Shown: positions 1 through 24,808 of the stretch, in pieces
Layout of the letters: each line of letters opens with the position of its first letter
How positions within the stretch are numbered: the first letter of the stretch is position 1
Source of the DNA: a virus
Reading direction: 5' to 3' (one strand)
IMG/VR virus record: IMGVR_UViG_3300017917_001251
Location: 1-35,367 of that record
DNA length: 35,367 bases
The notes under the pieces: generated by a model
The model's database searches: none
Told to the model about the DNA's origin: nothing
What the model saw: only the letters and a program-made list of their open reading frames with translations
Program-made: the position numbers and the translations under genes

Positions 1-969
1 AACCTCCGTACACTTGAGATCGCTTTTGATCGTACTTGTCAGTTTGCTTGCAGTTATTGCAATCCAGCTTTTAGCAGTAGCTGGGTACGCGATATTCGCA
101 GAAATGGACCGTATACCCAATTGGTATCCGATGGCCGCAACCACTTTACTCATACCCATGATAGCGCACAACTATATGATTATGGAGAGAACAATCCGTA
201 CGTTGATGCATTTTTTAAGTGGTGGGAGTCGGATCTACATAGAACACTACAAGAACTCAGAATCACAGGTGGAGAGCCCCTTATGTCCGCCCACACATGG
301 AAGCTCATTGACTGGTTTAAGACGAATAAGGGTAAGAGTAATACTCGCTTGGCGATTAATAGTAACCTCGGGACTGAGGTCGACATCGACCGTTTGCTTT
401 CCTCGATTGATGGACTTGAAATAGACTTATACACTTCAAACGAAGCCCTGGGACTGCAAGCAGAATACATCCGCGACGGGCTGGTGTGGGATGACTGGGC
501 CAACAATGTAGAACGCTTGTTGGATTCGGGGCAGTTCCGTGGCATACACGTTATGTGTACTATAAATGCCTTGTGCTTGACCACGTTGGATCAGTTATTA
601 GAAACAATGCTACAGTGGAAAACTGAATACGGGCGTGATGCCTTGAGCTTTACACTGAACATCCTGCGTTTCCCCAGCTTCCAAAGCCCCTTGGTGTTGC
701 CAGACACGCTGCGTACTCAATATCGAGATCAATTGCAGGCATGGTTAGATGCCAACAGGGATTCGGAATTCTTGCACGAGCATGAAATAAATCATTTGCA
801 ACGCTTGATTGATTATTTGGACATTGTAAAGACCCCGCATTCGGACGCATTTGATATGCCTAAATTACACAATGATTTCAAACAGTTCTATACACAGTAT
901 GATGCTCGTAGATCAAAAGACTTTGGCTCAGCATTTCCCCAATTAAAAGAATGGTATAATAGTTTATGA
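1..969 (+). CDS. radical SAM enzyme, 5' end cut by window edge
   Basis: The frame is open from base 1, so the true start lies outside the window. The first in-frame ATG (121) would remove the iron-sulfur motif and is not the start. The radical SAM motif CQFACSYC (CxxxCxxC) is at bases 37-60 and binds the 4Fe-4S cluster that cleaves S-adenosylmethionine. The SAM-contact motif GGEPL follows about 70 residues later, near base 272. No SPASM-like cysteines are visible after the core; any N-terminal domain is off the window. The stop overlaps the next start (ATGA, 966-969), so this is the visible first member of a four-gene radical SAM operon. Family membership is firm; substrate is unknown. Confidence 0.9.
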   Translation, partial: NLRTLEIAFDRTCQFACSYCNPAFSSSWVRDIRRNGPYTQLVSDGRNHFTHTHDSAQLYDYGENNPYVDAFFKWWESDLHRTLQELRITGGEPLMSAHTWKLIDWFKTNKGKSNTRLAINSNLGTEVDIDRLLSSIDGLEIDLYTSNEALGLQAEYIRDGLVWDDWANNVERLLDSGQFRGIHVMCTINALCLTTLDQLLETMLQWKTEYGRDALSFTLNILRFPSFQSPLVLPDTLRTQYRDQLQAWLDANRDSEFLHEHEINHLQRLIDYLDIVKTPHSDAFDMPKLHNDFKQFYTQYDARRSKDFGSAFPQLKEWYNSL

Positions 970-2630
970 AAATAGTCGGCACTATAGATCTTGCACAGTT
1001 CCCTGACCACGATTACGATGCTGGTAAAAAGTGGCTACGGAATCAATTAAAGAGCCTGCGAAAAAATTCTTTTGAATCTGATGAAAGAATAGTTGTTGCT
1101 CAGCAATGGGATTACTATGTAAAAGATCATGAAGAAACAGGCTTGATATTAAAAAATCTGCAGATCATGCTCAACGAAGAAGATATCACCAATTGCTTTG
1201 TGCAGTTACAGACCACTAACCCTGACATTGCACAAGAAGTACATGAGCTACAGCAAATTAACACAGATTCAAATCAAATAGAATTTCAAATAATTCCTGG
1301 ACCCTACCGTCGTGAGTTACTTGATCGTCATCCTTACAGCCGGGAAGAAGAATATCAGTACGGATCTGCCAATCCCATCAAGGTAAAACTTGCAAATTTG
1401 AGTCTCAAGAAACAATTTTTACTGAGTCAAAGCAAGACCTTCTGCATGTATCCCTGGGTGCATTTGCATGCTTGGCCCAACGGTCAAGCATATCCTTGCT
1501 GTCATGCTGAAGCAAGGCCCAGCTACGGTTCCACTAGAACACAATCTTTAAAAGAGATTTGGAACGGTCAGCCCATGAAAAAACTGCGTCAAGACATGCT
1601 GAATGAAACAGCCAACGCATCATGCCAACGCTGTTATGAACAAGAAAAGTCAGGATTCTTTTCAGGTAGACAAAGCAGTAACAAACACCACGGACACAAC
1701 ATTGATAGAATTGATCAAACCCAAGCTGACGGCCATTTGGATCAATTTGAAATGACCTACTGGGATATTCGTTTCAGTAATCTCTGCAACTTAAAATGCC
1801 GTAGTTGTGGACATATCTTTAGCAGCCAGTGGTATCAAGATCAAGCAAAACTAGCAGGCCCAGAATGGAAAGCTCGCAACACTGTGTTAAACTATGCAGG
1901 GCGCACTGAAACTGACATGTGGGAACAACTACTGCCACATTTAGACTACGTAGAACAGATCTACTTTGCCGGGGGCGAACCCTTGTTGATGGAAGAGCAC
2001 TACAACATCTTGAATGAGCTGGTCAAACGCGGCCGCTTTGATGTGCGGTTGATCTACAACACCAACTTCACTCATACTGATTTAAAGGGCAATAGTGTGT
2101 TTGACTACTGGAAACAGTTCAAGTCAGTGGCAGTGGGTGCCAGTTTAGATGCGTCAGGCGCACGTGGTGAATACATACGCAAAGGCACAGACTGGAGTGT
2201 GGTTGAACAAAATCGCAGAGACATGTTGAGTGTGTGCCCTGAAGTAGACTTTTATATCTCGCCCACACTGAGCATAATGAATGCCTGGCACCTGCCCGAC
2301 TTTCACCGTGACTGGGTATCAAAAGGGCTGTTGAAGGCCCAAGACTTGAACGTAAACATCCTGCAGGATCCTGCGCATTTTAGAATAGATATTGCCCCTG
2401 CTGAATACAAAAAGAAATTGGAACAAAAGTACCAAGAACATCTGGCTTGGTTGCAGGGCAAAGACCCATTGAATCGGGCCACACAAGGCTTTGAATCAGC
2501 CATGGTATTCATGAACGCCACGGACAACACACAACTAATAGATACTTTCTGGCGCAAAACTCATGAGCTGGACAGCATACGAAATGAAAAAATATTGGAT
2601 ATAATTCCAGAATTGGCAGCATTAAAATGA
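966..2630 (+). CDS. radical SAM protein with N-terminal SPASM-like cysteine domain
   Basis: A 554-aa protein. Residues 1-150 match nothing I recognise. A SPASM/twitch-like module follows (CMYPW at C160, paired C178-C179, W199, then CQRC at C220/C223), which would hold an auxiliary iron-sulfur cluster. The radical SAM core comes after it: CNLKCRSC (C274, C278, C281) and GGEP at 336-339. In most SPASM proteins the accessory domain follows the core; here it precedes it. It overlaps both neighbours by ATGA, implying translational coupling with the two flanking radical SAM genes. The auxiliary-cluster layout suggests a peptide or protein or other large substrate, but this is not shown by the sequence. 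Confidence 0.9.
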   Translation: MKIVGTIDLAQFPDHDYDAGKKWLRNQLKSLRKNSFESDERIVVAQQWDYYVKDHEETGLILKNLQIMLNEEDITNCFVQLQTTNPDIAQEVHELQQINTDSNQIEFQIIPGPYRRELLDRHPYSREEEYQYGSANPIKVKLANLSLKKQFLLSQSKTFCMYPWVHLHAWPNGQAYPCCHAEARPSYGSTRTQSLKEIWNGQPMKKLRQDMLNETANASCQRCYEQEKSGFFSGRQSSNKHHGHNIDRIDQTQADGHLDQFEMTYWDIRFSNLCNLKCRSCGHIFSSQWYQDQAKLAGPEWKARNTVLNYAGRTETDMWEQLLPHLDYVEQIYFAGGEPLLMEEHYNILNELVKRGRFDVRLIYNTNFTHTDLKGNSVFDYWKQFKSVAVGASLDASGARGEYIRKGTDWSVVEQNRRDMLSVCPEVDFYISPTLSIMNAWHLPDFHRDWVSKGLLKAQDLNVNILQDPAHFRIDIAPAEYKKKLEQKYQEHLAWLQGKDPLNRATQGFESAMVFMNATDNTQLIDTFWRKTHELDSIRNEKILDIIPELAALK

Positions 2631-3844
2631 ATATACCACACGATCGATTTTGCGTACTGCCCTGGGTCAGCTTGGAAGCCAGCCCCATTGGTACTGTGCG
2701 CCCTTGCTGTCTGGCCGATGATGAACTACTAGACGATTCAGGCAACAAGTTCTCATTGCTCACAGCAGACTTTGCCAGCATACAGAACTCACAGGCAATG
2801 ACACGCTTGCGTGAAGAGTTTTTAGCGGGCAAAAAGCCCCAGACCTGCAGAAAGTGCTGGAATGAAGAACGCAGCGGCCGCACAAGCAAGCGTATGCACA
2901 CCTTGGACAGAATGAAGCACATGGGCATCTCAGGAGAATGGACCACTGCGGCCAAACCGCTAATGTTCTTGGATCTCAAGCTGGGCAACATCTGCAACTT
3001 GAAATGCAGAATCTGTGGCTCATGGTCAAGCTCACAGTTTGCCACAGAAGAACTAAATGACATGCACCCAGACTCGGATAAGAAAAAGACATTTCCTTAT
3101 CAAATGCTACGTGCTGGCGCTTGGCCCAGAGAAAATCAAAAGTTCTGGGCAGAAATAGATTCAGTATTAAATGACATACGCTATATTGAATTCACCGGCG
3201 GCGAGCCATTTATGATAAAAGAACACTTTGCTATGTTACAGGGCATAGTGGATCGTGGTATTGCGCATCAAGTTGAAATACACTACAATACAAATGGCAC
3301 ACAGTTTCCCGAAGAAGCCGCAGAAATTTGGCGCCATTTTAAAACAGTGGAAATTGCGTTCTCTATAGATGATCTAAGAGCAAGATTTGAATATCAACGC
3401 ACCAATGCTGTGTGGACTGAAGTGGTATTCAATATTGATCGCTTTCGCTTGCTACGTGAAGACTATCCCAATATCCGCTTGCAATGCTGTAGCACAGTGA
3501 ATGTATTCAACGTGCATTATATTGATGAACTGGCGCACTGGATCGCTGAGCAGAACTTTGACTTTGTGTACTGGAACATGATGCATGATGCATGGTACTT
3601 TTCAATTGCCACGCTGCCCGCAGCAGCCAAGCAGCAGATCACTGCTCATTTACAGTCAGCAGATGTTCCCGCTCAATATCGCGAGGAATTTGATAGAATC
3701 ATTGATTTTATGAACAACGGTGCGTCAACAGATGGCATGATGTTGCGAATGAAAATACGGGACTTGGATCGCAAGCGCCAACAAAACATGCGAGATGTTG
3801 CACCAGAATTTGCAGCAATTATTGATTATGACTACCAAGCCTGA
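2627..3844 (+). CDS. radical SAM protein, SPASM-like module before the core
   Basis: A 405-aa paralogue of the flanking genes without the long N-terminal extension. The SPASM-like cysteines come first (C9 in CVLPW, C27-C28, then CRKC at C74/C77). The radical SAM motif CNLKCRIC (C123, C127, C130) and GGEPF (191-195) follow. The start overlaps the preceding stop by ATGA (2627-2630). The C-terminal 150 residues diverge from the paralogues and probably carry substrate specificity. Cofactor chemistry is firm from the motifs; substrate is unknown. Confidence 0.9.
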   Translation: MNIPHDRFCVLPWVSLEASPIGTVRPCCLADDELLDDSGNKFSLLTADFASIQNSQAMTRLREEFLAGKKPQTCRKCWNEERSGRTSKRMHTLDRMKHMGISGEWTTAAKPLMFLDLKLGNICNLKCRICGSWSSSQFATEELNDMHPDSDKKKTFPYQMLRAGAWPRENQKFWAEIDSVLNDIRYIEFTGGEPFMIKEHFAMLQGIVDRGIAHQVEIHYNTNGTQFPEEAAEIWRHFKTVEIAFSIDDLRARFEYQRTNAVWTEVVFNIDRFRLLREDYPNIRLQCCSTVNVFNVHYIDELAHWIAEQNFDFVYWNMMHDAWYFSIATLPAAAKQQITAHLQSADVPAQYREEFDRIIDFMNNGASTDGMMLRMKIRDLDRKRQQNMRDVAPEFAAIIDYDYQA

Positions 3845-5123
3845 CACAATGTGTTTGGCACCCTGGGTGCATACATATCTAAGCCCGCAGACAGAACGGC
3901 GCATGTGTTGTGCGTCACGGGAACCTGCACAGAACTTTGAACAGTATATAGATACCAAGAGTGGCACAGGCAAGTACATTCCCGTAACACTAGAACAGCA
4001 TTGGAATAGCGAGCACATGCAGAGTGTGCGCCGTAGAATGATGGCAGGAGAAACGCTGCCCGAATGTGAAGTATGCAATGATAAACTCCTTAACACAAGC
4101 GTCTATAGAGACTATTTCACGCACTTATTCTCCCATAAGTTATCTGAAATATTTGCTTCGACAACGCCGGAAGGGCGAACTACTATGGAACCAGTATCGT
4201 GGGACTATAGGTTTAGTAACTTATGTAATTTTAAATGTAGAATGTGTGGGGACATGCTCTCATCCTCTTGGGAAACAGAAGAGAAGTCTCACGCTATGGT
4301 TGATTGGTCGAATAGCAAGAACAATTGGATGGTACCCTCAGTCCGTAGTGCTATTTCGGCGTTTCAGGATAGTCAAATTGAGGCCGAATTTAGTGCTGCT
4401 GTCGAATCTCACAGAGTAGAAGAGATCTACTGGGTAGGTGGGGAACCGCTGATGTATGAACAGCATTGGCGCTACATGAAGCGAATTGTGGAGTTAGGCG
4501 ATGGACCCAAATTATACGCTAGATACAATACTAATCTGTCTAGAATTAGCCATAGGGGCGTGGATCTTTTTAGGGATATCCTCAGTAATATTAGAGATTG
4601 GCAAATATGTGCTAGCCTGGATGGCACTGAGCGAATCGGTGAATATATTCGTACAGGATTGGATTATGAACAGTGGTGTAGTAATTTTGAATCAGGATTA
4701 CGCTACGCAACAAACCCCAGACAAATGCGTATTGATTTTACCCTCACGCTGCCCGGAATGTTCGAGATTGGTGCAATGGAAAGATTATCACAGAAGTATG
4801 GGGTACAACTGTTAGCCAAAGTAATCTTTAGTTTCAGCCCGGATATTATAATGAGCCCACTGGCGTTACCGCGTGACTTGTTGGAGCCCTGGTTAGATGA
4901 ATTGATTGCAGAATGCACAACAAACCCCATGCGGGAGTTGTTGACACAATTAAAAACACGTCCAACGTTTGAGGAGCAATGGCCTGATCAATATCAAGCC
5001 GGGCTGTCAAAAGGCCGGGCTCGTGTGTTAAAATTAGAACAAATAAGAACACAGTCTGTAACAATGACTGACATCTTGGGCGCACGCCCAGAAGTATTGA
5101 AATGGTGGATGAAAATTGCTTGA
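3828..5123 (+). CDS. radical SAM protein, fourth in tandem
   Basis: The upstream in-frame ATG at 3795 is rejected. Starting at 3828 gives an N-terminus collinear with the preceding paralogue (Cys at residue 9 followed by LAPW; paired Cys at 27-28) and a 17-bp overlap with its stop. The 431-aa protein has SPASM-like C9, C27-C28 and CEVC (C80/C83). The radical SAM motif CNFKCRMC (C133, C137, C140) and GGEPL (204-208) follow. Its gene overlaps the next by 8 bp. It shares the unusual accessory-first domain order. Confidence 0.88.
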   Translation: MTTKPDTMCLAPWVHTYLSPQTERRMCCASREPAQNFEQYIDTKSGTGKYIPVTLEQHWNSEHMQSVRRRMMAGETLPECEVCNDKLLNTSVYRDYFTHLFSHKLSEIFASTTPEGRTTMEPVSWDYRFSNLCNFKCRMCGDMLSSSWETEEKSHAMVDWSNSKNNWMVPSVRSAISAFQDSQIEAEFSAAVESHRVEEIYWVGGEPLMYEQHWRYMKRIVELGDGPKLYARYNTNLSRISHRGVDLFRDILSNIRDWQICASLDGTERIGEYIRTGLDYEQWCSNFESGLRYATNPRQMRIDFTLTLPGMFEIGAMERLSQKYGVQLLAKVIFSFSPDIIMSPLALPRDLLEPWLDELIAECTTNPMRELLTQLKTRPTFEEQWPDQYQAGLSKGRARVLKLEQIRTQSVTMTDILGARPEVLKWWMKIA

Positions 5124-8204: not shown

Positions 8205-9245
8205 TTACAAATAAGTTTCTAAACCTCCACGACGGCGGATATCCTGTGTGCAACAAGATATGCCGCCGTCCCAGAAGTAGCTGTGACGCAACTCACTTAT
8301 TATGGGTTCGATCCCATGCTTCCTACAATAATCAAAAACTTCTTTGTTGTATGCGCTAAAGATAACATGCGACTCATCCAACACTAAACAGTTAACATCA
8401 AACACTGTTTCAGCAACAAAGCCGGTCCACTTGGTTAGATAAGTGTTGACAAACTCTGTGAACTCTGGTGTGGGGGTTTGTCCTTGTACATACCAAGCTC
8501 CGGGGCTTTGCTCATACTTGAACTTGCCCACTTCCATTGCTGCCCAGATACTGCTATCCCAGATCTTGCATACGTCCCAACCCGGGAAGTCACGTGCCAG
8601 GTCCAAGTTAACATCGTGCTTTGAACTCAACAACACACCTGGCTTGAGAATAGCAAATACGGCATCGCCGTGTCCGTCGGTCACTGCCTCGTGAACTCGA
8701 TATTCTGGACCTAACACGTTCTCCACAATCCATTTTGTTTGATCAGGGCGCAAAAAGTCTGAGTTATCAAAAAACACATCACGGCCAACACGCACAATGC
8801 AGCTCGCTGATGCACCATTTAAAATACAGTTTGGATCCCAGCCTGTGGGCCCGTGTGGATTAATCACAGTGGCACCTTGTGCTTCGTATTCTCGACACAA
8901 GCCATCAAGCTCTTGCATGGGCAACACACGAAGCAGTTTATCTCCCAAGGTGATTTGCCAATCCCTTGGCGTTAGTGGTGGAAGAGGTGCTCCAGACCCG
9001 TGTATCTGTCCTTGGATGAATCGTTCGCGATCTGGAAGATCTGGACGTCGAACCCTAGACCCAAAAGTCTCAATTGTCTTTTGCAAGTTAGTAAGATCTT
9101 CTTCAGTTTCGTATAATATTTGCTGTAATTGTTCTCGTACCTGTGGATTTTCAATAAAGTCAAAGTAGTCAGGCGTGTAAGCACGACCTACAATAACTTC
9201 TTCCAGTGGTTGCCACGATGTGTATGAATTAACTATATTGCTCAT
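8205..9245 (-). CDS. amidinotransferase-fold protein (arginine:glycine amidinotransferase superfamily)
   Basis: 346 aa. Family members move an amidino group from arginine to an amine through a Cys thiouronium intermediate, for example in creatine or streptomycin-type inosamine pathways. Visible features are an EEVIVGRA start, His in TDGHGD (H192), and the C-terminal GGISCCTQDIRR. The latter aligns with the catalytic GGxHCxTxDxRR block, placing the nucleophile at C331. The His just before that Cys is Ser (S330) here, so activity may be altered. AGGA six bases before the ATG supports this start. It overlaps the upstream gene by 17 bp. An arginine deiminase-like hydrolase is the main alternative. 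Confidence 0.85.
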   Translation of the reverse strand: MSNIVNSYTSWQPLEEVIVGRAYTPDYFDFIENPQVREQLQQILYETEEDLTNLQKTIETFGSRVRRPDLPDRERFIQGQIHGSGAPLPPLTPRDWQITLGDKLLRVLPMQELDGLCREYEAQGATVINPHGPTGWDPNCILNGASASCIVRVGRDVFFDNSDFLRPDQTKWIVENVLGPEYRVHEAVTDGHGDAVFAILKPGVLLSSKHDVNLDLARDFPGWDVCKIWDSSIWAAMEVGKFKYEQSPGAWYVQGQTPTPEFTEFVNTYLTKWTGFVAETVFDVNCLVLDESHVIFSAYNKEVFDYCRKHGIEPIISELRHSYFWDGGISCCTQDIRRRGGLETYL

Positions 9246-10413
9246 GAATTTTCCTGATCAAGCTATTTAAACGATCAGCCTTGTTGGCAACAAATAATTG
9301 TTGGTTGTGTGCCAGTTGTGACTCAGCAGCTTTGAACAGTTCGGGCAGTTGTGGCCTAGCAGCTTCTATGCTTTCACGCAGCCGTTCCCAACGCTGTGTG
9401 TGATTTGCAATGGTGTCATAACTGTTGTCCAGGATGTCATCAAACACTTGATAACCCAAGTCACGCAATACTTGTAAACTGTTGACACCACCTGCTACAA
9501 AAAACAGTTGCCCGTGCTTGATAGGCTTGAACGTTTTTTCTGTGACAAATGCACCACCACTTTGGTCTACATCAAACTGGCTTTCCAGTACAATTTGGCA
9601 ATAGGCATTGGTGAAGTATTTGGGTTCCATCACAGCATGATTGTTTCTATCACTATCTGCCAATTCATCACTGTAGTACGGCGCACTTTCTAAAAATTTA
9701 GTACGATCATAACGCAAGCGACTGATCATGTCCACCTCAATAGGACAGTCTGTGTCAGCACCATACGGTGCCTCACAATAACTCCAATAACTGTTGTTTA
9801 GTAATCCAGTGCGATGCAAGTCTGACATAGCAGTGGCACGCCACCATTTGTGCAGTCTACTCAAACAAGTGAATTCTCGCTCTCTGGGTCTATGATGTAT
9901 CTCACAAGGACTGTGCGGTAAGTTGCGCTGATAATACCACAGTTCAAAATCATGAAATGTAACAAAACCAGGCAATTGATCTGCGGCAGTATTACTGCTG
10001 ACAAACACATAGCAGTCTGCGGGAAGCGAATGTGATTGAATCAAACGGTCCAATCTGTTTTTGATACGTCTGGGGTTGTCACCTTCATGGTACATAAACA
10101 GCACACGCATTTTTCTTTTTTGTAGTTTGTTTTTAACTTCGGCAGACATCAACTCAAAGTAATCAATTTCAAAGTCAAAAAATCCCAGGCACACAGGGTA
10201 GTAAGTATTGTCAGGCAGTTCCATGCTGATGTCATATATGTTGACATCTATGCCGTGTTCAGTGCAGTATTCCTGCAATCGCAGCGGTGTGGTATAAGGC
10301 CAGTGTTCGCCAAATTGCCGCCAGGCGGGAGTATAAGGTCTTGCTTCGTGACGTGACAGTGCAGGGTATATGCGACCCTTGATAGTTCTATCAGCTACTA
10401 GATTCAATACCAT
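9229..10413 (-). CDS. glycosyltransferase-like protein with TEKTFKPI motif
   Basis: 394 aa. The C-terminal third has TEKTFKPIKHGQLFFVAG at 291-308, which resembles the nucleotide-sugar-binding block of fucosyltransferase-like enzymes (an E-K pair followed by a small-residue turn). A paralogue with the same block lies directly upstream (10391-11500), and the two overlap by 23 bp. AAGGAT seven bases before the ATG supports the start. There is no signal peptide or membrane segment, so it is cytoplasmic. The glycosyltransferase call is moderate; donor and acceptor are unknown. Confidence 0.72.
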   Translation of the reverse strand: MVLNLVADRTIKGRIYPALSRHEARPYTPAWRQFGEHWPYTTPLRLQEYCTEHGIDVNIYDISMELPDNTYYPVCLGFFDFEIDYFELMSAEVKNKLQKRKMRVLFMYHEGDNPRRIKNRLDRLIQSHSLPADCYVFVSSNTAADQLPGFVTFHDFELWYYQRNLPHSPCEIHHRPREREFTCLSRLHKWWRATAMSDLHRTGLLNNSYWSYCEAPYGADTDCPIEVDMISRLRYDRTKFLESAPYYSDELADSDRNNHAVMEPKYFTNAYCQIVLESQFDVDQSGGAFVTEKTFKPIKHGQLFFVAGGVNSLQVLRDLGYQVFDDILDNSYDTIANHTQRWERLRESIEAARPQLPELFKAAESQLAHNQQLFVANKADRLNSLIRKIHEQYS

Positions 10414-11500
10414 TCAACATATCCTTTAGTTCTGCCCATAGAACTTCTTCAAAGCCGCCATTGTAGAAATGATTCCAGTTGTGTTTGACAATGTCGCTGG
10501 CGCTGTGAAATATTGCATTGCGATATTCGGGTCCTAGTTCTTCTAACAGTTTAAGAGTACGAGCAACGGCAGCAATACGTTCGCTGTCATCTTCAATGTC
10601 GTCGTAACTCTCATCCCAAAAACTTCCAAATGTTTTAAATCCATAACTGCGCAAATACTTTAAACTACCTTTGGTGCCTACCAATACAAAAGGCATGCCC
10701 ATGGCAATGGGTTTAAAAGTCTTTTCAGTGATATGATGTCTGCGTCCGGTGGCCACAGTTTCAGTAACCAAGTACAACATACTGTCGGCACACTGATCAA
10801 ACAGGCTAAGCCAGCATGAGTGCATGGGGTGATCAGTTTCGCCAGCAAAGTTAATGGGCAACTGCTGTGCGGCAAACACCTGTTCTATGTCTGGGTATTT
10901 GCTTTTTAACGGCGCAATGGCATCGTGTATGCTGATGTTCTCTGCAGGGCACGTTTCTGGACAGCTGATATGATTGTTAGTCATGCCCAGACGGAATATC
11001 CAGTACAGCATTTCCAATCTATGCTGGCGCTCGCCAGCAATGATTCGATTGGGTGCAATAAATGTCCGGGTAGGTCTGCGTTGATCAATGGGCTGAATCA
11101 AAAACGTTTTGTCATATCCACGATACCAATCCAGTGCTGCCCAGCCATGAAAGAAATAGTAGTAGCTTTTCCATCCAAAACGAGCACACAAGGCATCAAC
11201 GTTGTCGCTGTCACGTTCACTGGTGCAGATAGCACCTATCTGTTGATCGTTCTTCCAATGCAGATCTCCGTTGTCGGCTCGAACCTTTTCAAATGTGGCC
11301 ATGTGGTAGTTCAAATGTATTGGCTCTTGATCAAAAAAGAATATATAATTGTGTTCGTGAACATTTTTATCGCCATAACCAATCACACTGTCGGGGTCAC
11401 TACGCCCAAATGGGTCACACATCAAGACTCTAGTGCCTGGTCGATTGGCCCGTATCCAGGGCCAAAAAGTATTGTTGTAAATTTCGTCTATTCTAAGCAT
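10391..11500 (-). CDS. glycosyltransferase-like protein, paralogue of its neighbour
   Basis: 369 aa with HITEKTFKPIAMGMPFVLVG at 256-275, the same block as in the adjacent protein. The shared extension (about 30 residues on, a YGFKTFGSFWDESYD-like segment against YQVFDDILDNSYD) supports common ancestry. The ATG shares the CATG at 11498-11501 with the divergent + strand gene, so the two start codons interlock. No clear ribosome-binding site is seen upstream. The likely role is sugar transfer in the same pathway or surface-modification block. Confidence 0.72.
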   Translation of the reverse strand: MLRIDEIYNNTFWPWIRANRPGTRVLMCDPFGRSDPDSVIGYGDKNVHEHNYIFFFDQEPIHLNYHMATFEKVRADNGDLHWKNDQQIGAICTSERDSDNVDALCARFGWKSYYYFFHGWAALDWYRGYDKTFLIQPIDQRRPTRTFIAPNRIIAGERQHRLEMLYWIFRLGMTNNHISCPETCPAENISIHDAIAPLKSKYPDIEQVFAAQQLPINFAGETDHPMHSCWLSLFDQCADSMLYLVTETVATGRRHHITEKTFKPIAMGMPFVLVGTKGSLKYLRSYGFKTFGSFWDESYDDIEDDSERIAAVARTLKLLEELGPEYRNAIFHSASDIVKHNWNHFYNGGFEEVLWAELKDMLNGIESSS

Positions 11501-14500
11501 GTTTGATATTTTTTATTCTGGAGTAAAGCCCAATTTGTTTGCACACGAACGTGCAGCAGATAGTATTGAGCATGCACAGCAGTTGAGTCGCACCAGGTAC
11601 TTTTGGTGGGTAAACTACTTATGTGATTATAGCACGTTCGATTGGGATTTCCAACCTGTGCCTTGGCAAGCAGAATACACACACTCATGGCCGTCAGCCT
11701 GGGATCAAGTGTTAGGTGCTGCCTTGGTGCCCCGACATGCTGAGTCATTACAATACTATGAACACAAACAAACAATACCGCCGCGACACTACTCAGAACA
11801 TTATAAAACTCTAAAGCATTGTGAGTTTGATTACTCTTGGACACCGCATCCATGGGACCCACCTTACAAGTATGTGTTTGGTAACCAACACTGGGACGGT
11901 ACTATCATGCCCACTGTCACATACACAGTGCCCGGTGCCACTGAACAAAAGTTTTTAGACTGGCCTGTAGCACAGTTAACAGCCAACAGAACCAACTGGG
12001 AAATACTTGAGCCCATAGATGAAGATGCCTGGGATTGGACTTGGGTGCCAAACCCCAAAGACCCTCCTTACATCTATGTGTTTGGCAATCAGTGGAATCC
12101 ACCAGAGTTCAAGGCCAGTGTGCGTTATGTTGTACCCGGAGCAACAGAAGTCAAGTACATGGATCGTCGCACAAAACGACTACCACAAAAGCATTTGTTC
12201 ACATCTAAAATTGCAGTGGCAGAATTTGATTGGTCCTGGGAACCAAATCCGTTTGATCCACCCTACATCTATGTGTTTGGCAATCAATGGTATTCTGCAG
12301 AAGTAGAACCCACTGTGGAATATCATGCGCCAGGCGCCACTGAACGCAAGTATGTGTCGGAAATCATAGCTCGTGTGCAACCTAACACCGCGCACTACTA
12401 TCAACACTGTGCAATAGAATCTTTTGATTATAGTTGGCATCCAGATCCCGGAGACCCACCTTATATCTATGTGTTTGGTAATCAGTGGCATGCTGCCGAA
12501 ATCATGCCTACAGTAGAGTATCGTGTGCCCGGTGCTACTGAAAAGAAATACATGGACCACCCTCGTGCAACACTGGTTCAACGGCACGACAACCACTGGC
12601 ACACTGTAATAGATTGTGAGTGGGACTATAGCTGGGTGCCTGATCCTGGAGATCCGCCCTACATCTATGTGTTTGGCAATCAATGGCATGCCGCAGAGAT
12701 CATGCCTACAGTTACCTACACTGTGCCTGGCGCAACAGAAAAGAAGTACATGGACTATCCTCGAGCTCGACTGCTTGAAGATATGATGTATTGGAACAAC
12801 CGTAGTGAGCATAGATATCACTTTGACTATAGCTGGAAGCCTGATCCTGGAGAGCCGCCTATGATCTATGTGTTTGGTAACCAACACTGGCCAGCAGAGA
12901 AAATGCCCACAGTGGAATGGATGCACCCTGACATCACAGAACACAGTGCCATCAAGTACATGGACTATCCTACAGCAACATTGCTACCAAATAAAACATT
13001 ATGGCATTTGCCCGCAGGTGTGCGTGAAGAACAAGTAGACTTTTCTTGGGTACCAGATCCAGGCGAACCTCCTTACATCTATCAGTTTGCCACACAGTGG
13101 CAAAAGACTGGCGGTCCGCAGTATCATGTGCCAGGTGCCACAGAAACCAAGTACCTTGAGCATGTGGAAGTCAAGATTGAAACTGTTACAGTACCTGTTG
13201 TGGAAATTGATCACTTGGATGGTAATACAGGTAACATTGCCAACACAGTCAAACGCATACGCTATTTTGACAACTACAGAGATACCTTGATTAGACTGTC
13301 CAAGAGCTTGGTTGGCGAGCATGAGTTTGTTTGGGTGTGTAGCAGTATCTGTGATTACACAGACTTTGATTTCAGTTGGCACCCAGAAAAATGGCAAAGC
13401 ACAATGCTTCATGTGTTTGCCAGTGATGAACAAAAGTTTGGGGACACATTCTACATGCATGTTCCTACCTTTGCTGCTAGAGCAGAGAAGAAAGCCTTGT
13501 TGGAATGGTATTCGGTAAACTATGTCCCACGCATACGTGTGCCGCGGCGCCCTGTGCCTGTGATACAACACAGTGAGGACAGTCAAGTTGATGCAGTTAA
13601 AAACACAGACTGGGCAGGACCGTTAGCGTTGTTTACCACAACAGATTATGTGGACCAAGCCTTGGTCACTGTTCCGTTATGGCGTCAAGAAACCAAAACT
13701 ATTACACCTTTGAGTGTAGGCGCAACGTCGGTGATTGTGCCCAAGGCATCTCGCGGCGATATCAAAACACAGTTATATGACTACCCTTACATAGACAAAA
13801 CACATCGTGTGCTAAAAGACCAACCCTTGGACATTGTGTTTATCAGCAATGGTGAAAACGAAGCAGAGTTCTTGTATCAATGGTTAGTTGACAGTGTTGG
13901 TGGTAACTCATTGATCAACAATAGCTATAGAATCAAACGTGTGCAAAATGTCAAAGGTCGTGTGGCAGCATATCATGCAGCCGCTGAAGCAAGTACTACT
14001 CCTTGGTTCTTCGCAGTGTTTGGTAAGTTGCAGGTCAGCAAACAGTTTCCTTGGGATTGGCAACCGGATCGTATGCAACAGCCCAAGCACTACATCTTCC
14101 ATGCAAAGAATCCAATAAACGGTTTGGAGTATGGTCACCAGGCCATGATTGCATATAACAAGAAGTTGGTGTTAGAAAACACCGGAGTGGGATTAGACTT
14201 TACACTGGATCAAGCACACGAAGTTGTTCCTATTCTAAGCGGACAAGCAAATTATTACACAGACAATTGGATGTGTTGGAGAACTGCATTTAGAGAATGT
14301 ATCAAACTCCAAGCCAGTTTACCAGATGTAGAAAACGAATATAGACTCAACCAATGGCTTGAAGTAGATTTTAGTGCTGGACAATGGAGCATGAAAGGTG
14401 CCGAAGATGCTGTAGAGTTCTATGAGTCTGTAAATGGCGATCCCACCGAACTCCGCAAGAGCTACGAGTGGGATTGGCTTGCAAGTTATGCGTTTATGAA

Positions 14501-14519
14501 GCGTAACTTAGTTCCGTAA
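11499..14519 (+). CDS. 1006-aa protein with 66-residue aromatic repeats and glycosyltransferase-like C-terminus
   Basis: Residues about 110-560 hold seven tandem units of about 66 residues. Each has the core W-x-P-[DN]-P-x-[DE]-PPYIYVFGNQW followed by a PGATExKY[ML] strand. Degenerate copies appear before (FDWDFQPVPW) and after (FDFSWHPEKW). The C-terminal 230 residues start LDIVFISNGENEAEFLYQWL and contain NVKGRVAAYHAAAEAS and TTPWFFAVFGK, resembling the nucleotide-binding end of a family 2-like glycosyltransferase. No DxD motif is obvious, so enzyme activity is uncertain. Its start interlocks with the divergent gene at CATG, and its 3' end overlaps the convergent gene by 12 bp. It may be a multivalent glycan binder or a transferase; function is not established. 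Confidence 0.85.
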   Translation: MFDIFYSGVKPNLFAHERAADSIEHAQQLSRTRYFWWVNYLCDYSTFDWDFQPVPWQAEYTHSWPSAWDQVLGAALVPRHAESLQYYEHKQTIPPRHYSEHYKTLKHCEFDYSWTPHPWDPPYKYVFGNQHWDGTIMPTVTYTVPGATEQKFLDWPVAQLTANRTNWEILEPIDEDAWDWTWVPNPKDPPYIYVFGNQWNPPEFKASVRYVVPGATEVKYMDRRTKRLPQKHLFTSKIAVAEFDWSWEPNPFDPPYIYVFGNQWYSAEVEPTVEYHAPGATERKYVSEIIARVQPNTAHYYQHCAIESFDYSWHPDPGDPPYIYVFGNQWHAAEIMPTVEYRVPGATEKKYMDHPRATLVQRHDNHWHTVIDCEWDYSWVPDPGDPPYIYVFGNQWHAAEIMPTVTYTVPGATEKKYMDYPRARLLEDMMYWNNRSEHRYHFDYSWKPDPGEPPMIYVFGNQHWPAEKMPTVEWMHPDITEHSAIKYMDYPTATLLPNKTLWHLPAGVREEQVDFSWVPDPGEPPYIYQFATQWQKTGGPQYHVPGATETKYLEHVEVKIETVTVPVVEIDHLDGNTGNIANTVKRIRYFDNYRDTLIRLSKSLVGEHEFVWVCSSICDYTDFDFSWHPEKWQSTMLHVFASDEQKFGDTFYMHVPTFAARAEKKALLEWYSVNYVPRIRVPRRPVPVIQHSEDSQVDAVKNTDWAGPLALFTTTDYVDQALVTVPLWRQETKTITPLSVGATSVIVPKASRGDIKTQLYDYPYIDKTHRVLKDQPLDIVFISNGENEAEFLYQWLVDSVGGNSLINNSYRIKRVQNVKGRVAAYHAAAEASTTPWFFAVFGKLQVSKQFPWDWQPDRMQQPKHYIFHAKNPINGLEYGHQAMIAYNKKLVLENTGVGLDFTLDQAHEVVPILSGQANYYTDNWMCWRTAFRECIKLQASLPDVENEYRLNQWLEVDFSAGQWSMKGAEDAVEFYESVNGDPTELRKSYEWDWLASYAFMKRNLVP
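11823..13170 (+). repeat. seven in-gene tandem repeats, about 200 bp each
   Basis: The conserved FD[YW]SW cores begin near 11826, 12028, 12226, 12424, 12622, 12823 and 13036. Spacing is 198-213 bp, always a multiple of three. Copies 4 and 5 are nearly identical in protein (PDPGDPPYIYVFGNQWHAAE in both) but differ at several codon third positions, indicating selection on the protein rather than very recent duplication. Confidence 0.9.
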
Positions 14520-15320
14520 TTTAACAAGTTGTTCCTGTATAATATTATAAATTTTTTGGGTGTCGGACGGATACTCTGCATGTTCGAATAGTATACCATT
14601 GTATAAACGACACACTTTGGATAGATTATAATTCAACCATGCTTGTTCGACAATGGTACAATCAACTGTTGTAAGTGTGTTTGCAAAAATATCATTTAAT
14701 AAATTATTGCATTTAATGTAAGACTGATAGCCTTGATTCACTTTTATAAATTCACTCCAGAGATCAAATAGAGATTGATCTGGGAAGAATGTTTGATTTA
14801 AAAATGTAGCAAGATTGGATAAAGCTACGCAAAAGTCTTTGAAAGAAAAGAAAGCATCAAAAGGAAATTCAAATATTGGATTGTTGATTTGCTTAAACTC
14901 TTTGTAGTGATTCGCAAAAGTGGCTCGTTCGTTAAATTTGCTATACCAATCGTTTCTTAGATACACTGCATTGTTGCGCACAGTTTCGTTAATGGCGAGC
15001 ATTTGCCTTTCAAAACCAACATCGCCTGCTTTATACATTAGATTAGTTAATGCAATAAAAAACATATTATCATTGTTGGTATCGATTACAATTCGAATAA
15101 TAATATCGCGATTTCTGATTACAAGATTATATTCTGGACTTGAAAAATGTCCGCAGTGAATCATTCGATCACGATAATAGTTTTCGTCGGGGGCATGGGC
15201 TGAATATGTGGGAGGTTTGAATATGCTTGACTTACTCGGTGTAGTTTGCATGACATAAACATTAGCAACATATTCAAGAAAGTGCCCGTGAGTACTGCCG
15301 TGAAAGTCAATTTTAATCAT
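14508..15320 (-). CDS. unknown protein with N-terminal GSTHGHFLEY motif
   Basis: 270 aa from the ATG at 15320, which overlaps the aminotransferase stop (ATGA, 15317-15320). A longer reading from 15422 would run 100 bp into that gene and is rejected. The N-terminus IDFHGSTHGHFLEYV resembles a strand-loop-helix ligand site and the start of the protein at 7674-8204. The rest is rich in Asn, Tyr and Phe, and the gene is more A+T-rich than its neighbours. It probably belongs with the aminotransferase and epimerase; function is unknown. Confidence 0.7.
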   Translation of the reverse strand: MIKIDFHGSTHGHFLEYVANVYVMQTTPSKSSIFKPPTYSAHAPDENYYRDRMIHCGHFSSPEYNLVIRNRDIIIRIVIDTNNDNMFFIALTNLMYKAGDVGFERQMLAINETVRNNAVYLRNDWYSKFNERATFANHYKEFKQINNPIFEFPFDAFFSFKDFCVALSNLATFLNQTFFPDQSLFDLWSEFIKVNQGYQSYIKCNNLLNDIFANTLTTVDCTIVEQAWLNYNLSKVCRLYNGILFEHAEYPSDTQKIYNIIQEQLVKLRN

Positions 15321-16417
15321 TTTGTTATTTCTAACACCGACTTGATAATGTATTCTACTTCCGAATCTGTAAGCTCGGGATAGATAGGTAAACTCAGCGC
15401 ACGACGAGTTAACGAATAACATGCACCCAACATGTCCGGCGCAGGATACTGACGATAAGCAGAGTGCTCGGGCAGCGCATGTTCGTAATGGACTTTGGTC
15501 TCAATGCCCCGCTCTGCTAGCCGGGATTGTACTTCATCCCTGTTGTCTACTTCAACCACAAACTTATGGAACGCATGATTGTGAAAGTTTGTGTCATCGA
15601 TCAAACAACGTAGATTTGCATCCTTGAACCCGTCTATGTATTGCAACGCAATGTCTTGACGACGATGTTGCCATGAATCTATGTGTGCTGCCTTGATCAT
15701 CATAGTAGCACAATCCAGTTCACTCATGCGTGAGTTAGATCCTGTACCTCTGTGGCCAGTGTGTTTGCCATTGTCTCTGTAGTCTTTTGCAAAATCAGCA
15801 AGATCATCTACATCAGTGACCACAGCACCGCCATTGCCATGGCAGGCCAAGTTCTTCATAGGGTCAAAGCTAATGGCAGCACCGTTGCCAATGCGCTTGC
15901 AATCAGCAGCCAGCCAGTGTTGTGCTGCATCTTCAATTACTAATGTACTATCTTTGATCCATCGTTGCCAATGTCGTACACTCATGTGGTGAGTTACGGC
16001 TGTACCATACAAACCCACTACTACAATGGCTTGATAACTTAGGTTGTGTGGGATAGTGTCGGGATTGATCAATCCATAGTTGTCTACGTCAGCAAAGTAA
16101 ACGTCCCAGCCTGCACGAACGAATGCATTGGCTGTAGCAACATAGCTCACAGCAGGCAACACAACAGTGGGCGGGTTTATGTTCTCAAGTTGTATCCAAT
16201 AGGCAGCAAGTATCTCTAGAGCCGTGGTGCCCGAGTGGCATGTCACAGCATGCTTGACACCATTCTTGTTGGCCAGCCAACTTTCAAATGCCTGTGTGTA
16301 CTGCCCGTTCATAAGCTGACCAGAGCTTAACACCTGGTCAGTTGCATACAGTATTTCTTCGCGTAGATTTTTATACTGTCTTTGAAGACCAGTAAATGCT
16401 ATTTGAAAGCCACTCAT
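15317..16417 (-). CDS. DegT/DnrJ/EryC1-type PLP sugar aminotransferase
   Basis: 366 aa from the ATG at 16417 (MSGFQIAF), with GAAGGA upstream; an in-frame ATG at 16444 is the alternative. The family aminates nucleotide-linked keto-sugars. Visible landmarks are SGTTAL (62-67) for the PLP phosphate, EDAAQ (162-166) for the ring, and SFDPMKNL with the PLP-linking lysine at K188. GGAVVTD follows. The C-terminus has the usual HYEHALPEHSAY segment. The gene overlaps the epimerase gene by 47 bp, so the two are co-expressed. Together they would make an aminosugar. Confidence 0.92.
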   Translation of the reverse strand: MSGFQIAFTGLQRQYKNLREEILYATDQVLSSGQLMNGQYTQAFESWLANKNGVKHAVTCHSGTTALEILAAYWIQLENINPPTVVLPAVSYVATANAFVRAGWDVYFADVDNYGLINPDTIPHNLSYQAIVVVGLYGTAVTHHMSVRHWQRWIKDSTLVIEDAAQHWLAADCKRIGNGAAISFDPMKNLACHGNGGAVVTDVDDLADFAKDYRDNGKHTGHRGTGSNSRMSELDCATMMIKAAHIDSWQHRRQDIALQYIDGFKDANLRCLIDDTNFHNHAFHKFVVEVDNRDEVQSRLAERGIETKVHYEHALPEHSAYRQYPAPDMLGACYSLTRRALSLPIYPELTDSEVEYIIKSVLEITK

Positions 16418-22046: not shown

Positions 22047-22226
22047 TTAAGGAAAGTCTGGGTTGCGTTCAGATTCCATGGGCACAGTGCGCCACTCGGA
22101 CCATTGCATGTTTTTGGCACTGTCGGGAAAAGGCCCGAGCCCAGCATACACAGTGACATCCACTTTCTGCCGATACTGCAAAACCTTTTCACCAACTACA
22201 GGCACATACCAACGCATTTCAATCAT
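22047..22226 (-). CDS. small unknown protein, 59 aa
   Basis: Begins MIEMRWYVPVVGEKVLQYRQ and ends ERNPDFP. Its ATG overlaps the VWA-protein stop as TAATG, which supports coupled translation. Beta-rich (KVDVTVYAGLGPFPDSA), reminiscent of the small phage proteins that follow structural or enzyme genes. Function unknown. Confidence 0.7.
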   Translation of the reverse strand: MIEMRWYVPVVGEKVLQYRQKVDVTVYAGLGPFPDSAKNMQWSEWRTVPMESERNPDFP

Positions 22227-23536
22227 TACTTTGCTTCCTCGTAGTAGGCATATTGACCAAACGGTGGGACAATAGTTGTAGTACCATGCAAGATGAACAC
22301 TGTCTCGGTATAGTTTTCATCACCCCACGAACCAAACGGGTAACCGTCTGTGAACATCACAAGGCGCTTGGGTTCGATCTCGTTTTCTTTCAAGTAGTTG
22401 TACACACAATCAAAGTCTGTACCACCACCACCTTTGACTTCGTAGTCGCAGATACTATCCAAGTTGTCTGAATCGTACTGTGCAGGGTTGTATGCATCGG
22501 TATCGAAAGTGATCACATGAATCTTGTAAGCAGGGAACGAGTCCATGATGCCTTGGATTTCACTCAAGAAGTCCTTCAACATTGATTCGCTGATCGAACC
22601 AGAAGCGTCCAATGCCACAGCAATATCGATCATGGGATCTTGATTGCGACCGGGCATGACAGCATCCATGTGCCAACCTTTGCGGCTTGCTCGCATCCAG
22701 GTGTAGTCTGACTTGATGGTCGACTCCAATTGCATACGCAACAGTTCACGCCAGTTCATCTTGGGCTCAGTAAGCTCTTGAATCAGTCGCTTGACGCCTG
22801 CAGGCAAGTTACCAGCACCGTCTACAGTAGCGGCCGCCGCCAACATGGCTTCCTTGATCTCATCGCGGATAGCTTGCTTTTCAGCTTCGCTTAACTTAGG
22901 ACGACCCTTGCCTTCACCGTCTTGGTCACCACCATCACCGTCGGCATCGCCTTCGCCATCCAAGTGCTCGTCGATCAACTTGTCGATGAGGTCGCTCATG
23001 TTGATTTTTTGTGCGTTCTTCATCAAGTCATCATAGACTTCTTCGGAGCTCATGCCATCATACTTGCGATCATACAAGGCAGGCACTGTGGTAATCAACT
23101 CGCCAACATTGTGTTTGACCAAGTCACCGTTGACACAGAAGTCGTTAGCAATGTTCCAAATCTGAGGATCGCGATCGCCACGGCGTCCGAAGTGATCATA
23201 AACACAGTGCAACACTTCGTGACCAAACAAGAATTCAATTTCTTTGGGACGCAACATTGCAATGAAACGCGAGTTGTAATAAAAGTGGCGTCCGTCTGTT
23301 GCGGCAGTTGGGCACCACTCGTCAGCATTGACCAACTTCAAACGAGTGGCCAAGTTACCAAAGAAGCTGGCTTTCAACAGCAAGCCCACACGAGCAGTGA
23401 TCAACTTTTCACGCACTTCGCGATCTAACTTGGGCTCCATGGGACCAATGAGATTAGCGAATTTTTTAGCATCTTCTTTGGTAGCAGTTGTGCCTGCGGT
23501 GCGAGCATGCAGAATGTCAGGGTTAAAATATTGCAT
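22226..23536 (-). CDS. VWA-like protein with metallopeptidase-like domain (MoxR partner)
   Basis: 436 aa. The N-terminal half has HEVLHCVYDH (106-115), the HExxH zinc pattern of the DUF2201-type metallopeptidase-like domain. An acidic Gly/Asp linker lies near 193-209. The C-terminal VWA-like domain has the metal-ion-dependent adhesion site: DASGS (310-314), GGGGTDF (369-375) and FTDGYP (395-400). Such proteins work with MoxR AAA ATPases as chaperones for metal insertion or complex remodelling; a MoxR gene lies 1.3 kb upstream at 24809. AAAGGA before the ATG and a consensus promoter support the start. Confidence 0.9.
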   Translation of the reverse strand: MQYFNPDILHARTAGTTATKEDAKKFANLIGPMEPKLDREVREKLITARVGLLLKASFFGNLATRLKLVNADEWCPTAATDGRHFYYNSRFIAMLRPKEIEFLFGHEVLHCVYDHFGRRGDRDPQIWNIANDFCVNGDLVKHNVGELITTVPALYDRKYDGMSSEEVYDDLMKNAQKINMSDLIDKLIDEHLDGEGDADGDGGDQDGEGKGRPKLSEAEKQAIRDEIKEAMLAAAATVDGAGNLPAGVKRLIQELTEPKMNWRELLRMQLESTIKSDYTWMRASRKGWHMDAVMPGRNQDPMIDIAVALDASGSISESMLKDFLSEIQGIMDSFPAYKIHVITFDTDAYNPAQYDSDNLDSICDYEVKGGGGTDFDCVYNYLKENEIEPKRLVMFTDGYPFGSWGDENYTETVFILHGTTTIVPPFGQYAYYEEAK

Positions 23537-23562
23537 GTGGGTCCTTTGTTGTTTATGTGTAT

Positions 23563-23591
23563 ATTATAGCAGAATGTGATTTATTCGTCAA
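23563..23591 (-). promoter_or_regulatory. sigma70-type promoter for VWA gene
   Basis: TTGACG (23591-23586), 17 bp, TATAAT (23568-23563), followed by ATACACATA. The TGA inside TTGACG is the stop codon of the upstream 97-aa gene (23588-23590). Confidence 0.85.
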
Positions 23592-23881
23592 TGCCATTCG
23601 TTGCCACGGTTGATTTCTTCGTCAGTAAATGCACCACCACTGCGGTCAGGATTCAATGCCCAACTATCTTGTGTGGCTTTTTCGCAACACTTCTCAACAT
23701 CAAACAAAATCACTTTGAGTTCGTTAATGTTGATAGTAAGGAAATCAGCGACAGCCTTTAATGCCATGTCCTCACCATCACGCAAACCAACAAAGGTTCG
23801 TTCTTTTTGGATAGCTTCTAAGTAGGCTTCCTTGCCGGCGATTGTGTTCTTCAGATTGTCGCGTACGGTGTAGATATTCAT
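23588..23881 (-). CDS. unknown 97-aa protein
   Basis: Mainly helical (MNIYTVRDNLKNTIAGKEAY) with a C-terminal acidic tail. Two adjacent Cys (KCCEKA) are the only notable residues. It overlaps the 56-aa gene by ATGA. Its stop codon is embedded in the -35 box of the next promoter. No function recognised. Confidence 0.75.
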   Translation of the reverse strand: MNIYTVRDNLKNTIAGKEAYLEAIQKERTFVGLRDGEDMALKAVADFLTININELKVILFDVEKCCEKATQDSWALNPDRSGGAFTDEEINRGNEWH

Positions 23882-24048
23882 TTTGACTCCACTTTTCCGT
23901 TGAGTTGTTTTGCAATTTTTTCTGCCTGGGCACGGCTCCGGAATGTTTGAGGCTGACGCACAAAAGTGATCTTGCCACTGCGATCGTATTCGTTACGACC
24001 AACTGCAAACTTTGCATCATCCTGGCCCAGTGTAATCACATAAAACAT
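23878..24048 (-). CDS. 56-aa unknown protein at promoter-proximal position
   Basis: Begins MFYVITLGQDDAKFAVGRNE. AGGAG five bases before the ATG and a consensus promoter 30 bases upstream give good support despite its size. It looks like a beta-hairpin plus helix (RSRAQAEKIAKQLNGK), resembling small SPOR- or DUF-like folds, but no family is certain. Its stop overlaps the next start by ATGA. Confidence 0.75.
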   Translation of the reverse strand: MFYVITLGQDDAKFAVGRNEYDRSGKITFVRQPQTFRSRAQAEKIAKQLNGKVESK

Positions 24049-24077
24049 ATTGGCTCCTTTTTGCTGTCTATGTGTAT

Positions 24078-24106
24078 ATTATAGCAAATTGGGCATTTTT
24101 GGTCAA
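24078..24106 (-). promoter_or_regulatory. sigma70-type promoter for 56-aa/97-aa genes
   Basis: TTGACC (24106-24101), 17 bp, TATAAT (24083-24078), then ATACACATAGACAGC. The -35 box sits in the inverted repeat TTTTTGG-TTGA-CCAAAAA, a possible operator. Confidence 0.88.
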
Positions 24107-24122
24107 CCAAAAAATGTAACCC

Positions 24123-24145
24123 AAAAAGTAATACTCAAGTATTAC
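24123..24145 (-). terminator. rho-independent terminator
   Basis: On the - strand GTAATACT-TG-AGTATTAC (24145-24128) is followed by TTTTT. The stem includes the stop codon of the 93-aa gene. Confidence 0.7.
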
Positions 24146-24742: not shown

Positions 24743-24747
24743 AGTAT

Positions 24748-24800
24748 AAAAAGGAAAGGGCTGTGTAGTCCACAGCCCGTGTATTTAATCTACACAGCCC
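24748..24800 (-). terminator. terminator with two alternative hairpins after moxR
   Basis: On the - strand, GGGCTGTGTAG (24800-24790), GGGCTGTG (24778-24771) and CTACACAGCCC (24768-24758) are followed by a T-rich run. The last arm can pair with either earlier arm: 8 bp with a 5-nt loop, or 11 bp with a 21-nt loop. Confidence 0.75.
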
Positions 24801-24808
24801 TTTGACCT

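What the first reader, a model, noticed from the sequence alone, without database searches (positions are those of the whole stretch)
11499..14519. Seven-repeat aromatic protein joined to a glycosyltransferase-like end
About seven 66-residue units with a PPYIYVFGNQW core form a regular array not matched by any repeat family I can name. Copies 4 and 5 keep the protein but vary codons. A multivalent sugar- or surface-binding scaffold fused to a transferase is one reading.
Basis: partly seen in the sequence, partly recalled or inferred. Interest (0 to 1): 0.7.

Follow-up and report, generated by a model that had tools for sequence, protein, structure and literature searches.

The report
Variable repeat array in glycosyltransferase-like phage protein
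Large freshwater phages related to T4 carry one copy of a protein whose two ends look like worn-down sugar-transferring enzymes and whose middle is a string of 0 to 21 small repeats of a fold not matched in the structure databases, a string that can be replaced wholesale between nearly identical phages, which suggests a modular recognition part in the phage's sugar-coating machinery.

Summary
ORF 11499-14519 (1006 aa) has seven 65-71-residue units (aa ~104-569), and synonymous sites between units are saturated. The protein is a single-copy gene of T4-like jumbo phages; 16 of 16 large contigs carry one copy. Relatives keep a fixed frame (N-module, array, cap unit, mid-module, C-terminal domain) but have 0-21 units. 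Array length changes at least 30 times on a tree of the constant part. In one pair of phages with ~92-94% identical flanks the array was replaced outright (7 vs 4 units, 43% aa identity).

The 'glycosyltransferase-like end' is real: a GT-A fold (Z 11.5). However, the DxD metal site is lost in all 56 relatives aligned (usually F-A-K), while a stand-alone 310-aa paralogue ~14-24 kb away keeps it (D-G-D in all eight read). The N- and mid-modules are homologous to the units; all three profiles map to the stretch just after DxD, so the array probably grew from a GT-A fragment. A four-unit model (pLDDT 96) has no PDB match.

The gene sits in a conserved sugar-tailoring island next to virion genes. 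Best guess: a non-catalytic GT-derived scaffold whose variable array recognises a glycan or acceptor. The function is inferred, not shown.

The parts
11499..14519 (+). Whole ORF, 1006 aa: N-module + 7-unit array (last unit = cap) + mid-module + linker + C-terminal GT-A-like domain
   Evidence: architecture
11499..11804 (+). N-module (aa 1-102), homologous to the mid-module and, in its second half, to the repeat unit
   Evidence: hhalign vs mid-module P 98.7%, E 1.6e-16; vs unit P 96.6%, E 5e-10
11808..12008 (+). Unit 1
   Evidence: unit HMM 97 bits
12012..12206 (+). Unit 2
   Evidence: 89 bits
12207..12407 (+). Unit 3
   Evidence: 97 bits
12405..12608 (+). Unit 4
   Evidence: 109 bits
12603..12803 (+). 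Unit 5
   Evidence: 106 bits
12804..13013 (+). Unit 6 (71 residues, 3-residue insertion)
   Evidence: 85 bits; indel
13017..13205 (+). Unit 7 = cap-type unit (YQFATQWQKTGGPQY signature); a cap-type unit or a divergent form of it ends the arrays examined, including single-unit arrays
13209..13499 (+). Mid-module (aa 571-667), shares the FDFSWHPexWQ...HVFAS segment with the units
   Evidence: hhalign vs unit P 95.9%, E 5e-9
13500..13823 (+). Linker (aa 668-775) with the conserved YDYPYIDK motif; no profile match to units
13824..14516 (+). C-terminal GT-A-fold domain (aa 776-1006)
   Evidence: AF2; VIA-align Z 11.5, 141 residues, rmsd 2.9 to B4GALNT1 9h6l; SunS/ThuS, WrtF, SpsA also listed
14019..14027 (+). 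Position of the GT-A DxD motif, here F-G-K (aa 841-843; K843 invariant): DxD lost
   Evidence: 0 of 56 relatives keep D.D; 6 of 6 aligned stand-alone homologue domains read D[GA]D; K843 invariant

Best explanation
A GT-A-derived, probably non-catalytic scaffold of a phage glycan-tailoring island. The frame (N-module, mid-module, C-terminal GT-A domain) descends from a GT2-like glycosyltransferase. A fragment of that fold just after the DxD site, or the corresponding part of a shortened module, was amplified into a tandem array of ~66-residue all-beta units ended by a cap unit. Proposed mechanism: the DxD-less C-terminal domain docks on the island's enzymes (for example the DxD-bearing 310-aa paralogue) or on a nucleotide-sugar or acceptor, while the array presents repeated aromatic sites to a polymeric or repeated acceptor such as a glycan chain or virion fibre. 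Changing the number and kind of units changes what is recognised. Shown by computation: fixed frame, variable and sometimes replaced array, GT-A fold, loss of DxD, single copy per genome, conserved island, homology of N- and mid-modules to units. Inferred: non-catalysis, acceptor or glycan binding, docking, and the biological target.
For: GT-A fold of aa 775-921. DxD lost in 56/56 with K843 invariant, while stand-alone homologues keep DxD. An intact single-domain paralogue lies near it in all 16 large contigs, with DGD in the eight read. Homology of units to N- and mid-modules; all three profiles align to the same post-DxD stretch of the C-domain, units P 62% against at most 2.2% for 40 decoys. 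Units occur only in this one ORF in 14 genomes, and every unit-bearing ORF tested (85 distinct) has both N-module and C-domain. Unit number 0-21, at least 30 changes on the constant-part tree. Array replaced between ~92-94% identical flanks, with breakpoints in the conserved cores of the first and cap units; a GT-like gene of the same island is also replaced there, while a fibre-like gene is 94.6% identical. Conserved island: radical-SAM/twitch enzymes, carbamoyltransferase, amidinotransferase, DegT, SDR epimerase, bounded in G007/G014 by structural-type virion genes.
Against: No ligand, partner or activity is known. Some GT-A enzymes work without DxD or metal (from memory: GT14, where basic residues replace the metal), and the invariant lysine fits that. 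The unit-to-C-domain link is moderate (P 62-66%) and fails against a profile of DxD-bearing homologues alone (P 0.3%). Relatives with no units exist, so the array is dispensable to the core role. Wholesale array replacement rests on one clear pair plus one partial pair; in other close pairs the array diverges about as fast as the ends. No coordinates were available to show where conserved aromatic residues lie.
Confidence: 0.4

Rival explanations
1. An active, metal-independent glycosyltransferase: the invariant lysine at the DxD position (F-[AG]-K) takes over the metal's role, the GT-A domain transfers sugar, and the array holds a long acceptor for repeated or processive transfer.
For: GT-A fold; the C-domain is among the most conserved parts, with many invariant polar residues including K843 and W927-R928...F931; the WR.AFRE..K segment is shared with DxD-bearing homologues; the best full-length Foldseek hit is a two-domain polymerase, K4CP, E 7e-5, though TM is only 0.12-0.19.
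Against: Both DxD acids are lost in 56 of 56 relatives while stand-alone paralogues keep them. The N- and mid-modules are shortened and cannot be whole GT-A domains.
Confidence: 0.27
2. A virion or surface protein that is the acceptor of the island's sugars, each unit offering one or more modification sites, so that unit number sets sugar load.
For: The island lies next to structural-type virion genes; unit number and sequence vary as in surface-exposed parts.
Against: The ends are GT-A-derived and not virion-like. No PHROG or Pfam structural match. The array's most conserved residues (D, W, P, Y, F, Q, K) are not the usual O-glycosylation Ser/Thr.
Confidence: 0.15
3. The units are substrates of the neighbouring SPASM/twitch radical-SAM enzymes, which would cross-link or modify the conserved aromatic residues (RiPP-like).
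For: Four tandem radical-SAM/twitch genes within 7 kb in the window and 8-21 NF033640 matches per large genome; conserved Trp/Tyr in every unit.
Against: Relatives without any unit keep the same radical-SAM cluster (G014). A stably folded ~66-aa unit is unlike known RiPP cores. Radical-SAM clusters also occur in phages where no such protein was found (PMC2853527).
Confidence: 0.06
4. A length ruler or rod: the array is a mere spacer whose number sets a distance.
For: Regular, confidently predicted repeat and widely varying number.
Against: Strong conservation of aromatic residues and replacement of the array's sequence, not only its length; no virion part with matching length variation was sought.
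Confidence: 0.05

Closest known systems
GT-A glycosyltransferases of the GT2-like type (B4GALNT1 9h6l; SunS/ThuS 7msk/7msp; WrtF 9omh; SpsA 1h7l)
   Same: C-domain fold over aa ~775-921, Z 9.4-11.5
   Different: DxD replaced by F-[AG]-K; 4-13% identity; a repeat array and two shortened modules in front
Stand-alone 310-aa GT-like paralogue in the same phages, and L079/L080 homologues in contigs of bacterial MAGs
   Same: homologous over the C-domain (E 1e-14 to 1e-20), shared WR.xFRE..K segment; the paralogue lies at the other end of the same island
   Different: single domain (two in L080), D[GA]D intact in those aligned, no units
K4 chondroitin polymerase (2z86) and other multi-GT-A-domain polymerases
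   Same: several GT-A(-like) modules in one chain; top Foldseek hit E 7e-5
   Different: TM only 0.12-0.19; theirs are full catalytic domains, ours are shortened and DxD-less
Radical-SAM + amidinotransferase clusters of Campylobacter T4-like phages CP220/CPt10 (PMC2853527)
   Same: five radical-SAM genes plus a putative glycine amidinotransferase in an exchangeable cluster; 11-12 radical-SAM proteins per genome
   Different: no relative of the repeat protein in 50,697 GenBank phage records; carbamoyltransferase/DegT/GT context not described there in the passages read

Membership tests
GT-A / GT2-like glycosyltransferase | GT-A (SpsA-like) fold | tested here: met
   aa 775-921: Z 11.5 to 9h6l, 141 aligned, rmsd 2.9; many GT-A and nucleotidyltransferase relatives listed
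GT-A / GT2-like glycosyltransferase | DxD metal/nucleotide-sugar motif | tested here: not met
   F-[AG]-K or similar in 56/56; D[GA]D in 6/6 stand-alone homologue domains. Some GT-A families lack DxD, so this lowers the claim without ending it
GT-A / GT2-like glycosyltransferase | sequence match to a curated GT family | tested here: not met
   no Pfam, PHROG or NCBIfam GT hit for the window protein; the homologue L080 matches Glyco_tranf_2_3 weakly, E 0.0013, below cut-off
GT-A / GT2-like glycosyltransferase | sugar transfer activity | not testable with these tools
   no experiment
Any described repeat family (Pfam repeats) | profile match of four-unit blocks | tested here: not met
   65 four-unit blocks: the commonest hit is LAG1-DNAbind, a 26-residue match with no stretch passing on its own; the rest scattered
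Repeat fold with a solved structure | structural match of the array | tested here: inconclusive
   four-unit model pLDDT 95.9, pTM 0.82: best PDB Foldseek E 4.3, no VIA-align Z of 2 or more among 20 chains; absence of a match is not proof of a new fold
RiPP precursor modified by radical-SAM/SPASM enzymes | short leader-core peptide dependent on the radical-SAM enzyme | tested here: not met
   a 1006-aa folded protein; relatives without units keep the radical-SAM genes

The most novel reading that the evidence does not exclude
A fragment of an enzyme fold (the post-DxD segment of a GT-A glycosyltransferase) has become a tandem-repeat fold of its own and serves jumbo phages as a modular recognition array, expanded, contracted and exchanged by recombination through the conserved core of the units, to retarget a phage-encoded glycan machinery.
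Probability: 0.3. Interest if true: 0.75.

Novelty: new variant of a known kind. Interest (0 to 1): 0.52.

Why it matters
If right, it shows how a repeat protein can arise from part of an enzyme and become a fast-changing recognition module. It would also give a first handle on what the large sugar-tailoring islands (radical-SAM, carbamoyl-, amidino- and glycosyltransferases) of jumbo phages act on. The natural series from 0 to 21 units in a constant frame is a ready-made experiment for testing what unit number does.

Tried and rejected
Pfam LAG1-DNAbind and DUF4408 hits are 11-26-residue matches at PPYIYVFG with no stretch passing by itself; rejected. Sequence searches of the PDB with the full protein and with the zero-unit alignment gave nothing. 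GenBank phages gave no match for the protein, for its DxD-bearing homologues L079 and L080, or for the 310-aa paralogue, so no isolate is available in that collection. Fold search of the unit model in PDB and VIA-align gave no match; BFVD matched only two uncharacterised relatives, A0A6J5L5L5 and A0A6J5LK21. Homology of the linker (aa 668-775) to the units looked plausible by eye (PTV...YDYP) but hhalign gives P 0.3%; dropped. A cyanophage origin was considered: no psbA in 11 genomes. A viral-contig search with L078 found nothing. A first unit alignment containing mis-registered L074 rows was not used further. Literature searches found no description of the repeat.
Full report
OBSERVATION. The ORF at 11499-14519 (+) is real, starts with ATG and encodes 1006 aa. 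A profile built from its units finds seven copies of 65-71 residues between aa ~104 and ~569, each at 85-109 bits, so chance is excluded. There is no DNA-level tandem repeat. Units 4 and 5 share 83% of residues, but only 19 of 41 identical residues use the same codon, 16.7 being expected from codon usage alone. The duplications are therefore old and kept by purifying selection. The seventh unit is a separate cap type (YQFxTQ..QkTGGPqY). The last unit of the arrays is of this type or a divergent form of it, even where the array is a single unit.

WHO CARRIES IT. Nothing similar was found in 50,697 GenBank phage records. In IMG/VR a first scan gave 76 loci; a scan with a zero-unit alignment confirmed 355 stretches and a unit scan 411, each listing the best 80. 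In 16 large contigs (159-353 kb) there is one copy each. Twelve of the 16 carry the T4-type major capsid protein gp23, so these are T4-like jumbo phages. None of 11 tested has psbA. Units occur only in this ORF in 14 genomes. Every unit-bearing ORF in two further sets of loci (85 distinct proteins) has both the N-module and the C-domain.

A FIXED FRAME AROUND A VARIABLE ARRAY. Unit number runs from 0 (23 of the first loci) through nearly every integer to 21. On a maximum-likelihood tree of the constant C-terminal part, unit number needs at least 30 changes (shuffled mean 39.3). In the closest informative pair, L037 and L054, the DNA on both sides is 92-94% identical, the C-part 97% and the N-module 92% identical in protein. 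The arrays have 7 and 4 units with only 43% mean identity between internal units, and identity stops inside the core of the first unit and resumes inside the cap unit. This looks like exchange by recombination through the conserved unit core. A second pair (L043/L052, 7 vs 3 units) is partial. Other close pairs show no excess divergence of the array, so exchange is sporadic. Over ~42 kb shared by the L037 and L054 contigs, the other replaced places include one GT-like gene of the same island and several small ORFs, while a fibre-like gene stays 94.6% identical. This is one comparison and only suggestive.

WHAT THE ENDS ARE. AlphaFold2 with 57 aligned sequences gives pLDDT 89, pTM 0.55. The C-terminal domain is a GT-A fold: B4GALNT1, Z 11.5 over 141 residues, rmsd 2.9; also WrtF, SunS/ThuS and SpsA. 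At the DxD position the 56 relatives aligned read F-A-K (49), F-G-K (4) or similar; none keeps D.D, and lysine 843 is invariant. The stand-alone homologues L079, L080 and the ~310-aa paralogue keep D[GA]D. The paralogue is present in all 16 large contigs ~14-24 kb away; eight were read and all have DGD. The window's own copy would lie outside the 35-kb fragment.

WHERE THE UNITS COME FROM. Profile comparison links the N-module to the mid-module (P 98.7%) and the units to both (96.6% and 95.9%). All three profiles align to the same stretch of the C-domain just after the DxD site. For the units P is 62-66%, against at most 2.2% in 40 decoys. Against a profile of DxD-bearing homologues alone the match disappears (P 0.3%), so the GT origin of the units is likely but not proven. 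L078 (contig in a Pacearchaeota MAG, probably a phage contig) shows by eye about five longer tandem modules and may be an intermediate. The four-unit model (pLDDT 95.9, pTM 0.82) has no PDB match (best E 4.3) and in BFVD matches only two uncharacterised relatives.

SURROUNDINGS. Synteny is strong in 55-73 of 79 loci for most neighbours. They are tandem radical-SAM/twitch enzymes (NF033640), a carbamoyltransferase (NovN/GdmN/TobZ relatives), an amidinotransferase (StrB/GATM/SxtG relatives), two GT-like genes (annotated by eye only; no Pfam, NCBIfam or PDB support), a DegT aminotransferase and an SDR epimerase/dehydratase. In G007 and G014 the island runs to the DxD-bearing paralogue and then to fibre-like and virion genes (PHROG virion structural and baseplate/head-closure matches). 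The nine large genomes tested hold 8-21 matches to the twitch radical-SAM model, not all above its cut-off. Campylobacter T4-like phages have a comparable exchangeable radical-SAM plus amidinotransferase cluster and 11-12 radical-SAM proteins per genome (PMC2853527); a marine T4-like genome with 12 radical-SAM genes is also reported (PMC5332604). The island type is therefore partly known; this protein is not described in the papers found.

INTERPRETATION. The best-supported reading is a GT-A-derived scaffold with a modular recognition array in a glycan-tailoring island. The frame, array variation, fold and DxD loss are shown computationally; binding, docking and target are inferred. The main rival is an active, metal-independent transferase using the invariant lysine (known from memory for some GT-A families such as GT14). 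A virion acceptor protein, a radical-SAM substrate and a mere ruler are less likely. Membership: it has the GT-A fold but fails the DxD and profile tests, so I do not file it as a glycosyltransferase, only as GT-A-derived. IMG/VR contigs are metagenome assemblies; collapse of units is unlikely for diverged units but possible for recent duplicates.

Noticed in passing
window 1-5123 (+) and large contigs G001-G015: Four tandem radical-SAM/twitch (NF033640-type) genes here, and 8-21 matches to that model per large T4-like jumbo phage genome; why a phage needs so many is unexplained.
   Followed up: partly
window 8205-9245 (-): Amidinotransferase of the StrB/GATM/SxtG family (PDB matches E 1e-16 to 1e-10) with no Pfam hit, conserved at ~80% identity in 55 of 79 loci; with carbamoyltransferase and DegT it resembles aminoglycoside-type sugar tailoring.
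   Followed up: partly
window 9229-10413 (-) and 10391-11500 (-): Two neighbouring GT-like genes with a TEKTFKP motif near the C-terminus; no Pfam, NCBIfam or (for the second) PDB match. A member of this family is absent from one of two otherwise near-identical phages.
   Followed up: partly
L236:8138-9067 (-), and G001-G016: A ~310-aa DxD-bearing GT-like protein with no Pfam, PHROG or GenBank-phage match, present in all 16 large contigs.
   Followed up: partly
L078:2540-4549 (+): A contig binned as Pacearchaeota codes for a 670-aa relative with about five longer tandem GT-like modules, next to DegT, carbamoyltransferase and radical-SAM genes; probably a phage contig misplaced in a MAG, and a possible evolutionary intermediate.
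   Followed up: partly
window 14508-15422 (-): 304-aa ORF between the repeat gene and DegT, found in only 2 of 79 loci; no Pfam or PHROG match.
   Followed up: no
window 22226-25891 (-): VWA/DUF2201-type protein and MoxR-like AAA ATPase genes in a phage, next to an SPFH/band-7 protein; role unknown.
   Followed up: no
window 27483-28769 (-), 30271-31275 (-): S-adenosylhomocysteine hydrolase and a phosphate-binding (PstS-like) protein, host-type metabolic genes in the phage.
   Followed up: no
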